Program-made: the position numbers and the translations under genes | Assembly: GCF_004369205.1 (NCBI RefSeq) | Contig: NZ_QFGA01000003.1 | Coordinates: 496,001 to 560,000 of the forward strand | Length of the DNA stretch: 64,000 nt | Direction: 5' to 3' | Origin: Pelotomaculum schinkii | GTDB taxonomy: Bacteria > Bacillota > Desulfotomaculia > Desulfotomaculales > Pelotomaculaceae | Part shown: positions 1,875 to 28,177 of the stretch, in pieces | How the letters are laid out: each line of letters opens with the position of its first letter | Numbering within the stretch: the stretch's first letter is position 1 | Notes under the pieces: generated by a model | What the model was told of the DNA's origin: nothing | Databases searched by the model: none | Seen by the model: the letters and a program-made list of their open reading frames with translations, nothing else

Positions 1875-1920
1875 AATATTACCCCCTCCTAATTTTGAAA
1901 ATTCCGTTAATTAGTTAAAA

Positions 1921-1964
1921 AAGAAAAAAATAACAGGGAGTAACTCTTTAAGTCACCCCCTGTT
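1921..1964 (-). terminator. Rho-independent terminator after the alcohol dehydrogenase
   Basis: On the minus strand AACAGGG...CCCTGTT forms a stem-loop, followed by ATTTTTTTC and a second T-run. It lies between the alcohol dehydrogenase stop (2038) and the start of the membrane protein gene (1874). Confidence 0.75.
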
Positions 1965-2037
1965 TCCGGCAAGACCACACTATGGGGCGAGCGTGTACTA
2001 CACGGTATTTATTTGAGAGGTGATAGCCGGGATTAAG

Positions 2038-6860: not shown

Positions 6861-7594
6861 ACATAGTCGGTGGATAAAAGCACACTCTTCATCTGAGTCA
6901 ACAACGGGTGCCTGAATTCTGAATACCTCACCAACGAAAGCACCTGGACCGGTATACCGACAAGTACATTTATCCTTTCCTTTTCAATTACTGAAAGTGT
7001 TGATTCCGGGTCTGTCACAAGTCCATGTTTGACAGCGACAGCATTCATCCTGCCAAGAGCCTTATAAAGCAGATCACCTATACTGCCCGGACGCTCACCC
7101 GGAAGCAGGATCAATATCCTGTCGCCTTCTCCGGACAAATTACTCATGCCGTGGTGGAAAAAATCCATCGTCTCTTCCTGGTCACCGTCAGTCAGGAACA
7201 ACCTTTTTGGATTGCCTGTAGTTCCTGATGTTGTTACTGTTTTTATGCGTGATATCTGCTGTTGCGGGACACAGATGAAAGACAAAGGATCCTCAGTCAG
7301 ATTTTTGCTGGTTGTAAACGGAAACAGCCGGAATTCATCCAGCGAAGTAATATCAGTCGATTTGATTTTGGCAAGATGATTGCGGTAAAAACTGCTGCGG
7401 TCTTTAGCATATCGAATGAGATCATTTAATTTTTTTACCTGATATTGTTCGATCTGCTCTCTTGTAAGCGGATTATTAGTACTGCCGTTAATTTTACGGT
7501 TTATCCATGCATCGAGCGGTGTCTTTTTTATCTGCCTGTCCACTGCGTCAGCAAATGTGTTAGCTATATCTGTTCCCCTCCAAAAGCAATTCAC
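6845..7594 (-). pseudogene. Truncated AMP-dependent CoA ligase (phenylacetate-CoA-ligase-like)
   Basis: About 250 residues of an adenylate-forming CoA ligase of the PaaK-like group: it has the phosphate-binding TSGTTGNPKR motif near residue 120 and upstream helices typical of that family. A full protein would be about 420 residues. The frame runs correctly to STDYVPHT and then passes straight into the nucleotidyltransferase remnant, so a deletion removed the C-terminal half. It overlaps the end of the C_GCAxxG_C_C gene by 35 nt if GTG at 7594 is used. GGAGGGG lies 7 nt before an in-frame ATA at about 7565, so the true start is uncertain. Resembles the DVU_1553-type ligase (recalled name). Confidence 0.8.
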
Positions 7595-15072: not shown

Positions 15073-15262
15073 AATACGCAAAGAAACACAGTTTGCATTA
15101 GTAAACAATTGTATCTATGTAGATACACTGTTAACCCAGCCCTTTCCAAACACGGGAGGCAAAAAAGTTTCCCTTTTCACCCAATGGTTAACTCGGCATT
15201 AACTCTCGTTGACAGCCTTGTAAACTCGGACTTATGATATTAAGTTATACGTTTTATATGTC
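15073..15262 (-). promoter_or_regulatory. Structured leader of the Mo-hydroxylase gene, candidate riboswitch
   Basis: On the minus strand GTTAACC and GGTTAAC pair to enclose about 50 nt of purine-rich, unpaired-looking sequence (GGGTGAAAAGGGAAAC, GCCTCCCGTG, GGAAAGGGCTG), then a short hairpin TGTATCTACATAGATACA, then the terminator at 15030-15072. The layout (aptamer-like fold plus terminator before a molybdopterin enzyme) suggests a Mo- or W-cofactor riboswitch, but I cannot confirm the class by eye. Confidence 0.45.
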
Positions 15263-19778: not shown

Positions 19779-21317
19779 ATGACCAGTTACAAAGAGATTC
19801 TGCGGCTACATAGCCTCGGAATCAACAACAGCCGCATTGCGTCTGGATGCGGATGCTCTCGAACCACGGTTATTAACGTGCTTCAAAGAGCAAAGGATCA
19901 AGGGCTAAGTTGGCAGACAGTGGCCGAAATGTCCGACAAGGAGTTGTCACAGCGCCTTTTTTCTTCGGAGAGCGCTAAGCCCGCGTACAAAATGCCGAAT
20001 TACGACTACATCCATCGTGAGATGGCGAAAAGCGGTGTGACCTTAACTCTGTTATGGCTTGAATACTGCGACCAGTGTCGCGAATCCGGGCAAGTACCGT
20101 ACAAGTCGACCCAGTTCAACAAATATTACGCTGACTATGTGAAAAGCACCAAGGCAACCATGCACATTCACCGTAAGCCTGGGGAAATCATGGAGGTAGA
20201 CTGGGCGGGACAAACCGCCAGGATCATCGACACAGACACGGGAGAGATTATCCAAGCCTATGTGTTTGTGGCTGCCCTGCCATACAGCGGCTATGCCTAT
20301 GTGGAAGCCTTCCTTTCACAAAATCAGGAGAGCTGGATTACCGCCCATATCAACGCCTATCGCTTCTTCGGTGGAATCACTCGCATTATGGTACCGGACA
20401 ACTTAAAAACCGGCGTGGAGAAGGTGACGAAAGGCGAAGCAGTTATTAACAAGACCTATCAGGAGATGGCTGAACATTATGGTACAGCGGTTATTCCATG
20501 CAGAGTTAGGGCTCCCAAAGATAAACCCACGGTAGAAGGATCGGTCGGCATCATCTCAACATGGATACTCGCTGCTCTGCGTAATCAGCAGTTTTTATCG
20601 TTACGAGAGCTGAATGCTGCCATTCGGGAAAAGCTAATGGTTTTTCTAGAGAAACCTTTTCAGAAGAAGAACGGGAGCAGAGCCACCTTGTTCGATGAGG
20701 AAAAACCCTTCTTGCTGCCGTTGCCCTTAAAGCCATTTGAATTGGCGACCTGGAAGATTGCCACTGTTCAATACAATTACCATATCAGTGTGGAGACCCA
20801 GAAGTATTCGGTGCCGTTTGAATACATCAAGCAGAAAGTTGATGTCAGGATTACCCGCAATGTGATTGAGGTCTTCTTCCAAGGCAATCGCATTTGTTCT
20901 CATCCCCGGCTCTATGGTAGGAGCAATCAATACAGCACCCTGGAAGCCCATATGCCACCAGATCATCAAAAATATGTGTCTTGGAACGGCGACCGCTTTA
21001 AATCCTGGGCAGCCAAAATCGGTGAGAATACAAGCGCTGTCATTAACCTGTTTTTAGGAAGTCACAAAGTCGAGCAGCAGGGCTACAAGGCTTGTATGGC
21101 TCTTTTGAAACTGGCCGACAAATATTCGGTGGAGCGCCTTGAATCGGCCTGCACCAAAGCATTGTCCTACACTGTACAGCCTAGCTTGAAGAGCGTTCAG
21201 GCCATCTTAAAATCCGGTCAGGACAAGCTGCCGAAAGAAACCCCGGGCCATTCCTCCTCTGAGTTTGGACTCACACGAGGAGCCGATTACTACAGCAGGA
21301 GGGATGGAAAATGCTAA
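19779..21317 (+). CDS. istA: IS21 transposase IstA
   Basis: About 512 residues. N-terminal helix-turn-helix (NNSRIASGCGCSRTTVINVL), then a retroviral-integrase-type catalytic core with the first Asp in MEVDWAGQTARI near residue 138, VPDNLKTGV near 207 and KPTVEGSVG near 247 giving the DDE triad. C-terminal region has the SVPFEYI segment found in IstA proteins. RBS AAGGAGGG supports the ATG at 19779. Looks intact, so the element may be active. Confidence 0.95.
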   Translation: MTSYKEILRLHSLGINNSRIASGCGCSRTTVINVLQRAKDQGLSWQTVAEMSDKELSQRLFSSESAKPAYKMPNYDYIHREMAKSGVTLTLLWLEYCDQCRESGQVPYKSTQFNKYYADYVKSTKATMHIHRKPGEIMEVDWAGQTARIIDTDTGEIIQAYVFVAALPYSGYAYVEAFLSQNQESWITAHINAYRFFGGITRIMVPDNLKTGVEKVTKGEAVINKTYQEMAEHYGTAVIPCRVRAPKDKPTVEGSVGIISTWILAALRNQQFLSLRELNAAIREKLMVFLEKPFQKKNGSRATLFDEEKPFLLPLPLKPFELATWKIATVQYNYHISVETQKYSVPFEYIKQKVDVRITRNVIEVFFQGNRICSHPRLYGRSNQYSTLEAHMPPDHQKYVSWNGDRFKSWAAKIGENTSAVINLFLGSHKVEQQGYKACMALLKLADKYSVERLESACTKALSYTVQPSLKSVQAILKSGQDKLPKETPGHSSSEFGLTRGADYYSRRDGKC

Positions 21318-22057
21318 ACGATTCAACCGTAGCCAAGCTTCACGAAATGAAGCTTAGTGTCATGGCTGCAGCATTCCGGGAACAGCTCAAAAACGCAAAC
21401 TTGTCTGACATGGCTTTTGAAGAACGCTTCGGTCTGCTGATCGATGCCGAATGGGCAGCCCGTAAAAACAATCGGCTGTCGCGCTTGATCAAAAACGCGG
21501 GTTTTGCCTTCAATGACGCTTGTATTGAGAACATTGAGTATCATGACGATCGCAAACTCGACAAAGCTCAAATCATCCGCTTGGCTAGCTGTAACTACAT
21601 CCAAGAAGCCCATAACATCATAATCCTTGGAGCCACGGGTAGCGGAAAAACCTACCTCTCAAATGCTTTTGGCATGGCTGCCAGCCGAAACTTTTACACG
21701 GTTAAATATGTACGGCTTCCCGATCTGCTGGGTGAATTGGCCATTGCACGCGGTGAGGGGACATACCGCAAGGTCATCAAAGCTTACAAACAGGTAAAGC
21801 TGCTCATTTTGGATGAATGGCTTCTGTTTCCGCTCAAGGAAAGCGAAGCCCGCGATCTGCTTGAGATCGTAGAATCTCGTTACAAAAAAGCTTCTACCAT
21901 ATTCTGTTCCCAGTTTGAGATCGGCGGTTGGTATCATAAAATTGGCGAACCGACACTGGCCGATGCCATTTCAGATCGCATTGTGCATGATTCCTACACC
22001 ATTTTTATCGACGGTAAAAACTCTATGCGGGAGCGCAAGGGTATTGCCAACAGATAA
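21311..22057 (+). CDS. istB: IS21 helper ATPase IstB
   Basis: 248 residues, DnaC-like AAA+ ATPase that assists IstA in target selection. Walker A GATGSGKTYLSNAFG near residue 103, Walker B LLILDEWLLFP near 165, and the C-terminal ISDRIVHDSYTIFIDG segment typical of IstB. Overlaps istA by 7 nt. Appears full length. Confidence 0.96.
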   Translation: MLNDSTVAKLHEMKLSVMAAAFREQLKNANLSDMAFEERFGLLIDAEWAARKNNRLSRLIKNAGFAFNDACIENIEYHDDRKLDKAQIIRLASCNYIQEAHNIIILGATGSGKTYLSNAFGMAASRNFYTVKYVRLPDLLGELAIARGEGTYRKVIKAYKQVKLLILDEWLLFPLKESEARDLLEIVESRYKKASTIFCSQFEIGGWYHKIGEPTLADAISDRIVHDSYTIFIDGKNSMRERKGIANR

Positions 22058-22419
22058 TTCAAAACAGCCTTACGGCTATTGAGGGCTCTGCCCTCAAACT
22101 CCCGAGGTTTATCGCTTAGTTTTCCAAAGAGAGTGATGTTATGTTGCTTTTAACAAAAAAAGAGCGACGCTCACCGGCATCACTCTCCCCGCAAAACTCT
22201 TAAGCCGCTCGGGTCACTCCTCAGTGTTGCCCTATCCTGCTTAAAAGTAAAAGCAGTTTGAGTATACCATGTGATCCTTTAGTTATCAATGTACAGCCAC
22301 TACGGAATGATTGTTCAATTTAAACGGTCTTAGTGTTCAACTTCGGCGGTCTAGGTGTTTTTTCTTAGCGGAATATACAGGTTCTAACATTAAAAGCATA
22401 GAGTTGGGAGAGTTAACGA

Positions 22420-26713: not shown

Positions 26714-26840
26714 TATAATATAACTAGTTTAACGCTTTGGTTCTGGCAGGGCAACCAGAAAGGTATAAGGGATGACTATAAGGTCATCCTTAATACCTGT
26801 CAGAACCCAATGGTTGCTCCGGTTGCTCTTCAAAAGAGTC
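26714..26840 (+). ncRNA. Putative structured RNA with nested stems and pseudoknot
   Basis: After a TATAAT at 26714-26719 the sequence can fold as follows: outer stem GGTTCTGGCAG (26739-26749) with CTGTCAGAACC (26797-26807); inner stem GGTATAAGGGATGAC (26762-26776) with 26783-26797; and a 7-bp pseudoknot GCAACCA (26751-26757) with TGGTTGC (26811-26817). A small CTCTT-CAA-AAGAG hairpin follows. It lies upstream of an uncharacterised gene at 26941. No known riboswitch class is recognised. The rest of 26604-26940 shows nothing. Confidence 0.5.
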
Positions 26841-26940
26841 GTATCCTCCATCTACTGGCTACTTTAAGGTGAATGAAGTTAACCGTATTAACGATATATG
26901 ATTACCTTTAATAACGTAATGGTACTGAAAGAAGTGGGGA

Positions 26941-27387
26941 ATGATGAGTGATTTAGCCGATCTTTTGAGGAGAAAGAAACAATTGAAAGAGGAGTCGGAG
27001 AAAAAAGTCACTAAAATTAATAAACAATGGTGCATGAGGATAAAATTATTTTATAGGCATCTTGAGGATTGGCTATCGGATTTAATTGAAGAAAAACTGT
27101 TATTTACATTGTACGAGGATATGACTATTTATAAACAGAGCCTGGGCGCTTACTATGCAAAAAAATTCATATTGATAGCGGGAGATAAAAGAATCGAGTT
27201 TATACCAAATATAAGGTCTGCTGTTGGGACAACTGGAAACATACAATTGAAAACAAAAAAAGGGAAAATAACATTTGTGAGTGACAGGGACGGTATTTGG
27301 AAACAAGTTATTTCCCTGTCACCATTTGAAGCTAAAATCCTTACTAAAGATTATCTTAGAAATTTATTGAAAAGTTTATTAATTTAA
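26941..27387 (+). CDS. Hypothetical protein
   Basis: 148 residues, Lys- and Leu-rich, high AT content compared with neighbours. N-terminal 35 residues are a charged, coiled-coil-like helix (LLRRKKQLKEESEKKVTKINKQW). The middle is predicted mixed alpha/beta (IRSAVGTTGNIQLKTKKGKI). No membrane segment, signal peptide or known motif. A GTGGGGA site precedes the ATG. I do not recognise it. First gene of an AT-rich stretch to about 29.3 kb and downstream of the structured RNA. Confidence 0.65.
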   Translation: MMSDLADLLRRKKQLKEESEKKVTKINKQWCMRIKLFYRHLEDWLSDLIEEKLLFTLYEDMTIYKQSLGAYYAKKFILIAGDKRIEFIPNIRSAVGTTGNIQLKTKKGKITFVSDRDGIWKQVISLSPFEAKILTKDYLRNLLKSLLI

Positions 27388-27454: not shown

Positions 27455-28177
27455 GTGGTAATAATTCATGAAACTAAATTGATAAATAAACAGGGACTTT
27501 CCGAGGAGCAATTCTTATTAACCTACGATGCAAGTAAATATGAGAGACTATCAGTAACAGTAGATATACTTATTTTTACTTTAACTGGGGAAGAAAAGAA
27601 TTACGAGATGTTTCCAGGGAAAGTTTTGAAACTGCTTCTGATTAAAAGGGGTGGCCATCCATATATGGGTAAATGGGCTATACCAGGGGGTTTTGTAAAA
27701 ATAGATGAAAGCTTGGATGAAGCAGCACTAAGGGAACTCAAAGAGGAAACTAATATTGATGACATATATATGGAGCAACTTTATACATGGGGAGATGTAT
27801 CCAGAGATCCACGCACAAGAGTGATAAGTGCTTCCTACATGTCACTTGTTGACAGCTCAACACTTAATATAAAAGCTGGTGATGATGCCGATGATGCTAA
27901 ATGGTTTGCTATTTCATGTGAATTGTATCAGGAGCAAAGGACTTTAACTAAAAGAGGATATATTCTACAGAAACTTTTTAAGTTGAGCTTGTCAAATGAA
28001 GGAGATAACCTTTCTGCCATTGTAAAGACCGTAAAAATAGTTGAAGGTAACGCAACCAAAACAGAAAGAACAGTTGTTGAATCAAATGGAATAGCGTTTG
28101 ACCATGCAAAAATAATTGAGTATGCACTTGAAAGGCTAAGAAACAAAATTGATACACAGATGTTGCATTTAACCTAA
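27455..28177 (+). CDS. Nudix hydrolase
   Basis: 240 residues. Complete Nudix box [24 protein letters not shown] near residues 75-98 (pattern G-x5-E-x7-REUxEExGU). N-terminal half is the ADP-ribose-pyrophosphatase-like Nudix fold; the C-terminal 80 residues could be a winged-helix domain as in NrtR-type regulators, but I cannot confirm that. The start is uncertain: GTG at 27455 is the first in-frame choice and has no clear ribosome-binding site. Part of the AT-rich accessory stretch. Confidence 0.85.

What the first reader, a model, noticed from the sequence alone, without database searches (positions are those of the whole stretch)
26714..26840. Unassigned pseudoknotted RNA element
An 11-bp outer stem, an imperfect 15-bp inner stem and a 7-bp loop-to-tail pseudoknot (GCAACCA/TGGTTGC) lie just after a TATAAT. 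The layout resembles a compact riboswitch or small regulatory RNA but matches no class I know. A second GGTTGC at 26821 could compete in the pseudoknot.
Basis: seen in the sequence. Interest (0 to 1): 0.6.

Follow-up and report, generated by a model that had tools for sequence, protein, structure and literature searches.

The report
Shared structured RNA of bacterial transposons
The odd folded stretch is a worn-out copy of a widespread, strongly conserved RNA structure that many unrelated bacterial jumping genes carry next to their transposase gene; an intact copy sits about 4.5 kb away in the same window, and what the RNA does is not known.

Summary
The fold is real (z -3.4), but it is not a riboswitch, and the GCAACCA/TGGTTGC pseudoknot is private to this copy (4 of 101 relatives, window included, keep at least 6 of 7 pairs). 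Window 26725-26859 is a decayed copy (45.5 bits) of a structured RNA module without an Rfam 15 match at gathering thresholds. In intact elements the module lies between the transposase stop codon and the right inverted repeat of insertion sequences (IS). It follows IS256, IS3, IS21, IS110, ISLre2 and tyrosine-recombinase genes in several phyla. An intact copy (22105-22255, 77.4 bits) lies in the window's own IS21 element, one of 8 equal-scoring copies in this genome. In 101 aligned copies 31 of 35 pairs show double changes. Within IS256 one transposase clade carries it; the RNA tree needs at least 11 switches between recombinase families. A -10 box facing inward, folding energy and wobble counts favour transcription opposite to the transposase, as a separate small RNA; no transcript was seen. 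Function unproven; best guess: an IS-borne small RNA acting on a general host partner. Pairing with the transposase start was not supported. The 2010 'Transposase-resistance' motif could not be compared.

The parts
26725..26859 (+). Decayed copy of the IS-borne structured RNA module (+ is the strand of the lost transposase; the RNA is probably read from the - strand)
   Evidence: R1 covariance model 45.5 bits, E 2.8e-9 in the window; DNA relatives in 6 of 60 relative genomes, own included
26739..26807 (+).
26751..26757 (+). GCAACCA, 5' half of the reported pseudoknot; not conserved in relatives
   Evidence: 4 of 101 rows keep 6 or more of 7 pairs
26811..26817 (+). TGGTTGC, 3' half of the reported pseudoknot; in relatives this is the P3 5' strand (mostly AGGCGC)
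26714..26719 (+).
   Evidence: position against L006 and others; weak statistics; no PF00872 transposase gene is left in the genome
22105..22255 (-). Intact copy of the RNA module inside the window's IS21 element (RNA strand taken as -)
   Evidence: R1 77.4 bits, E 8.1e-17; 8 equal-scoring copies in the genome
22261..22289 (-). Candidate promoter of the intact RNA: TTGATA-17-TATACT, extended -10
   Evidence: 1 found, 0.7 expected in shuffles, so not significant on its own; conserved -10 across the family
22060..22100 (-). Two short hairpins at the 3' end of the presumed RNA (GAGGGCAGAGCCCTC and AGCCGTAAGGCT-GTTTTG), terminator-like by eye
   Evidence: fold of window:22060-22262:- z -4.26; the pattern scan found no terminator by its own rule
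19779..21316 (+). IstA, IS21-family transposase (no internal stop)
   Evidence: family from the 479-aa ORF of copy L202 (NF033546)
21311..22057 (+). IstB, IS21 helper ATPase
   Evidence: PF01695; NF038214 on copy L202
19609..22379 (+). IS21-family element carrying the intact RNA (right end fixed by 5 copies, left end by 2)

Best explanation
The finding is a fossil of a mobile RNA module. Intact modules (about 145 nt) sit between the recombinase stop codon and the right inverted repeat of insertion sequences of at least six unrelated recombinase families, and have been exchanged between those families. Shown: conserved structure, position inside IS, multi-copy spread, mixing of IS families on the RNA tree, decay of the copy at 26725-26859. 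Inferred (about 70%): it is transcribed on the strand opposite to the recombinase, from a promoter just inside the right end, as an independent small RNA with two arms (P3-P4 and P1-P2) and a conserved 3' tail GCGNUAAACUC. Inferred and weak (about 30%): because the recombinases are unrelated, the RNA's partner is a general host factor or process, and the RNA tunes expression or upkeep of the IS through it.
For: Structure: 31 of 35 pairs with double changes, 91.1% of cells paired, covariation 0.441 vs 0.157 in shuffles, 0 of 500 as high. Position: a complete IS256 element with both inverted repeats (L006); carriers L233, L239 and L243 have 196-259 nt from stop to outer IR end, non-carrier L250 has 50. 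Families next to it. Exchange: at least 11 label changes on the RNA tree of 57 rows. Strand: about 42 of 101 best -10 hexamers fall in 5 of about 76 positions; promoter z 0.83 against -0.71 at the sense side; antisense fold lower in 91 of 101 and lower z in 77 of 101; antisense-type wobbles 38 vs 21 in 32 live copies, one near-invariant pair set aside; terminator-like hairpin with a U-rich run in L122.
Against: No transcript was seen. Single promoters are mostly not significant (21% of 99 loci at p 0.05 or less). Over all 101 copies the wobble bias is not significant (115 vs 98, p 0.27). The extra helix P3ext shows more sense-type wobbles over all copies (28 vs 13; in live copies 2 vs 6), and one near-invariant U-G (96 of 101) is a pair only on the sense strand. 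In the window's intact copy the sense strand has the better z (-4.9 vs -2.4). Two IS256 non-carriers (L244, L245) also have long 3' gaps of 227-228 nt. 51 of 81 pattern loci had no recognised recombinase just upstream, some for lack of sequence.
Confidence: 0.68

Rival explanations
1. The structure works on the sense strand, as a 3' untranslated region of the recombinase mRNA that sets its stability, translation or processing.
For: It starts 1-50 nt after the stop codon in most intact copies; P3ext wobbles over all copies and a near-invariant U-G suit the sense strand; the window IS21 copy folds relatively better on the sense strand.
Against: Inward -10 box outside the element; better antisense folding in 91 of 101; wobble bias in live copies.
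Confidence: 0.2
2. The structure acts as DNA: hairpins or repeats bound by the recombinase or by replication proteins at the right end.
For: It lies close to the IS right end.
Against: The same element accompanies unrelated recombinases; loops are highly conserved; energies and wobbles favour one RNA strand.
Confidence: 0.08
3. An antisense regulator of the IS10 RNA-OUT type that pairs with the transposase translation start.
For: Orientation opposite to the transposase.
Against: In 19 IS256 copies the start region was not a consistently preferred partner (fraction of mRNA windows at least as good 0.02 to 0.84).
Confidence: 0.05
4. A CsrA sponge: GGA motifs in the P4 loop, the P3 internal loop and P1 on the antisense strand bind CsrA.
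For: GGA motifs on the antisense strand (alignment); 58 of 63 RNA-bearing genomes have csrA against 223 of 335 without the RNA, p 1.6e-5.
Against: 5 RNA-bearing genomes lack csrA, one of them with 5 copies (G236); the P4 loop is not always GGA; genome size and kinship were not controlled.
Confidence: 0.1
5. A riboswitch or leader element, as first suggested.
For: Compact fold.
Against: 3' of recombinase genes, multi-copy, no Rfam match.
Confidence: 0.01

Closest known systems
ISPpu9 small RNAs Asr9 and Ssr9 (PMC8450116; abstract and outline seen)
   Same: IS-encoded small RNAs, one antisense, one downstream of the transposase
   Different: Described for one IS, with an RNA complementary to the tnp 5' UTR; here no start-region pairing was found and the RNA is shared by unrelated IS
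IS110 bridge RNA (PMC11208160, PMC11208158; search listing only)
   Same: Structured RNA of an IS; one of our carriers has an IS110 recombinase (L229)
   Different: Bridge RNA serves its own IS110 recombinase; here most carriers are DDE transposases and equal-scoring RNAs accompany different insertion sites
IS10 RNA-OUT (recalled)
   Same: Small RNA opposite to the transposase
   Different: Lies at the transposase start and pairs with it; here at the 3' end, no such pairing found
Transposase-resistance motif, 2010 screen (PMC2864571; table line and passages seen)
   Same: Name and 'several phyla' suggest a transposase-linked motif without an Rfam number
   Different: Rated probable cis-regulatory and ambiguous as RNA; its alignment could not be opened, so identity is undecided
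Mobile/repeat sequence candidates, 2024 screen of 50 genomes (PMC11109978; passages seen)
   Same: 250 multi-copy structured motifs, often linked to transposases; this one may be among them
   Different: The one described there, MRSC-65-2, is a single long stem

Membership tests
Known Rfam families | Score at or above a gathering threshold | tested here: not met
   Window, 7 relative loci, 20 other loci with no hit at the element; permissive searches gave only weak hits
Riboswitch / cis-regulatory leader | Lies in the 5' UTR of the gene it controls | tested here: not met
   Lies 3' of recombinase genes
IS110 bridge RNA | Linked to an IS110-family recombinase | tested here: not met
   IS110 is upstream in G263 copies (L229) and 582 nt upstream in L095; IS256, IS3, IS21 and others elsewhere
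Antisense RNA of the RNA-OUT type | Pairs with the transposase translation start | tested here: not met
   19 IS256 copies, start region not consistently favoured
Intrinsic terminator | GC hairpin followed by a T run | tested here: not met
   0 found by the scan at both window copies
omega RNA of TnpB/IscB | Overlaps or adjoins a tnpB/iscB gene | tested here: inconclusive
   None among the 27 proteins scanned with Pfam, most of them flanking; not all loci were scanned
Transposase-resistance motif (2010) | Matches its published alignment | not testable with these tools
   Only the table line could be read
Independent small RNA | Own promoter and discrete transcript | tested here: inconclusive
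   Promoter-like signals; no expression data

The most novel reading that the evidence does not exclude
A free-standing small-RNA gene that behaves as a shared accessory module of insertion sequences: it is handed between IS256, IS3, IS21, IS110, ISLre2 and tyrosine-recombinase elements across several bacterial phyla and acts on a host factor common to them, rather than on any one transposase.
Probability: 0.35. Interest if true: 0.85.

Novelty: new variant of a known kind. Interest (0 to 1): 0.7.

Why it matters
IS are held to carry little beyond their recombinase. A conserved non-coding RNA that unrelated IS families keep and exchange would point to a common need of transposons in their hosts, such as control of copy number, expression or host response, and would give a directly testable handle on it. 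It would also explain many unexplained intergenic structured repeats in genomes of Bacillota and other phyla.

Tried and rejected
Riboswitch reading: rejected by position and copy number. Reported pseudoknot: rejected, not conserved. Protein-coding on the reverse strand (AGGAGG then NTG CTG GAG AGC): rejected by eye, because compensatory changes in the P4 stem remove the start codon in L020 and L046 (alignment); no formal coding test was run. Helix P0 (columns 11-15 with 254-259): 85.5% paired but only 3 double-change cells, not accepted. P3ext (170-173 with 258-260) covaries (0.454 vs 0.205) and crosses the outer P1 helix, so a conserved pseudoknot or an alternative fold is possible; not resolved. 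Start-region pairing: not supported. CsrA link: significant but confounded. blastn of one IS256 copy (L039) against plasmids, phages and E. coli genomes: no match, so no annotated record was reached. Third window hit 1891-2028 (11.8 bits, E 0.25): taken as noise. Literature searches for the core strings and for IS families with structured or antisense RNA found no description of this element in the open library; most subscription papers and all supplements were out of reach.

Full report
What is there. Rfam has no match in the window at this place. A DNA search with the element found relatives in 6 of 60 relative genomes, own genome included. A search with the clean copy of one of these (L003) found matches in 59 of 200 relatives, often several per genome.

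Where the relatives lie. In L002, L003 and L006 the element directly follows the stop codon of an IS256-family transposase (Pfam PF00872; NCBIfam NF033543 for L003 and L006). L006 is a whole IS: the repeat TTTTGTGTAAATGG lies at both ends and about 220 nt separate the stop codon from the right repeat. In a survey of 249 phylum genomes with the L006 transposase, 30 loci were scanned with the RNA model. The 14 loci with a hit in the expected place have transposase identity of 56% or more to L006; the one at 56% (L243) is weak, 25.6 bits. L240 and L241, at 79-80%, have no hit, but their alignments stop short of the transposase's C-terminus. The other 14, at 56% or less, have none. In carriers with a detectable exact repeat word (L233, L239, L243), stop to outer IR end is 196-259 nt, against 50 nt in non-carrier L250; non-carriers L249, L247, L244 and L245 gave 142, 185, 228 and 227, so length alone does not separate the groups; 9 of 17 loci gave no exact word. 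The module is most simply an addition to one IS256 clade.

Not only IS256. I examined the first 80 plus the viral one. Of these 81 loci 80 have a model hit at E 0.01 or less, L104 not. In 30 of 81 a recognised recombinase ends within 450 nt upstream on the same strand: 21 IS256, 4 IS3, 2 IS21, 1 ISLre2, 1 tyrosine recombinase, 1 other integrase core (several queries came from these same loci). In the remaining 51 there was none, in part because the stretch began too close. Families were checked by profile searches; ISLre2 (L120) passes the Pfam but not the NCBIfam cut-off. G263, with several copies, carries an IS110 recombinase (L229). In the phylum sample 63 of 398 genomes match the model at E 1e-4 or less.

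In this genome. The window holds a second, intact copy at 22105-22255 (77.4 bits) just after istB of an IS21-family element, besides the reported one at 26725-26859 (45.5 bits). The genome has 11 copies: 8 score identically (those looked at lie in the IS21 element), one adjoins a frame like the IS3 transposase of L220, one has no recognised gene, one is the reported relic. No IS256-type transposase gene remains, which suits a fossil. The relic has lost the P3 pairing, most of P4 and the inward promoter box.

Structure. The model aligned 101 hits from 100 sources. For a named structure of five helices, 91.1% of cells pair, 31 of 35 pairs have double changes, and the covariation score is 0.441 against 0.157 in shuffles and at most 0.135 when partners are slid. 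Two helices, P1o and P0, were not part of the model, so their counts do not lean on it; P1o is supported (5 of 5 pairs with double changes), P0 hardly. A further 3-bp helix also covaries and crosses P1o. The alignment was fitted to the other helices and includes relics and related copies, so the numbers are not probabilities.

Which strand. On the reverse strand a -10-like hexamer often lies just outside the element: about 42 of 101 best hexamers fall in 5 positions of about 76 scanned. With a sigma-70 matrix whose frequencies I recalled, the mean z is 0.83 in 99 copies against -0.71 at the other end, but only 21% reach p 0.05. The antisense strand folds lower in 91 of 101, and against dinucleotide shuffles in 77 of 101. 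In 32 live copies antisense-type wobbles outnumber sense-type 38 to 21 once one near-invariant pair is set aside, p 0.036; over all copies 115 to 98, p 0.27. Against this, the near-invariant U-G and, over all copies, P3ext favour sense, and the window's intact copy has the better sense z. The antisense reading is the better one, not proven.

Exchange. A tree of 57 RNA rows needs at least 11 changes of recombinase family where 5 is the least possible; a starred branch joins the window's IS21 copy with IS3 and IS256 copies. Long branches and short sequence limit it, and labels were assigned by hand.

Function. Pairing with the transposase start was not favoured in 19 IS256 copies. csrA is more frequent in RNA-bearing genomes (58 of 63 against 223 of 335), but kinship and genome size were not controlled and 5 carriers lack it. 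Because unrelated recombinases carry the RNA, and equal-scoring copies in this genome lie at different sites, I hold a site-guide role unlikely and favour a general host partner; that step is inference.

Novelty. No paper in the open library was found to describe it. Two published lists could contain it: the 2010 Transposase-resistance motif (one table line read) and the 250 mobile/repeat candidates of 2024 (passages read).

Noticed in passing
window 15123-15243 (-): Molybdenum/tungsten cofactor riboswitch, 62.9 bits, the only Rfam hit in the window.
   Followed up: no
window 20190-20215; L202, L222, L223, L225: The window's IstA reads EVDWAGQ, while copies L202, L222, L223 and L225 have a codon change giving EVDSAGQ, next to what looks like a catalytic Asp (recalled motif); the window copy may be the active form.
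   Followed up: partly
L131 (LADP01000041.1), 351-497 + and 7136-7282 -: A contig framed by two inverted IS256 ends with identical RNA scores, which may be a composite transposon or an assembly edge.
   Followed up: no
window 22081-22116; L243: The own IS21 element and an IS256 element of another genome (G187) share a nearly identical leader, GAGGGCTCTGCCCTCAAACTCCCGAGGTTTATC, a direct trace of exchange.
   Followed up: partly
window 26941-27387 (+): 148-aa ORF just after the relic with no Pfam or NCBIfam match.
   Followed up: no
window 27455-28177 (+): Nudix protein resembling the ADP-ribose-responsive repressor NtrR but far below the cut-off (94.5 of 400 bits).
   Followed up: no
window 1891-2028 (+): Third, very weak model hit (11.8 bits, E 0.25) that contains CCGGCAAGACC; perhaps an older relic.
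   Followed up: no
L087, L115, L137 (Akkermansiaceae): The element has an integrase-core gene on the opposite strand about 750 nt away, a different arrangement from Bacillota.
   Followed up: no
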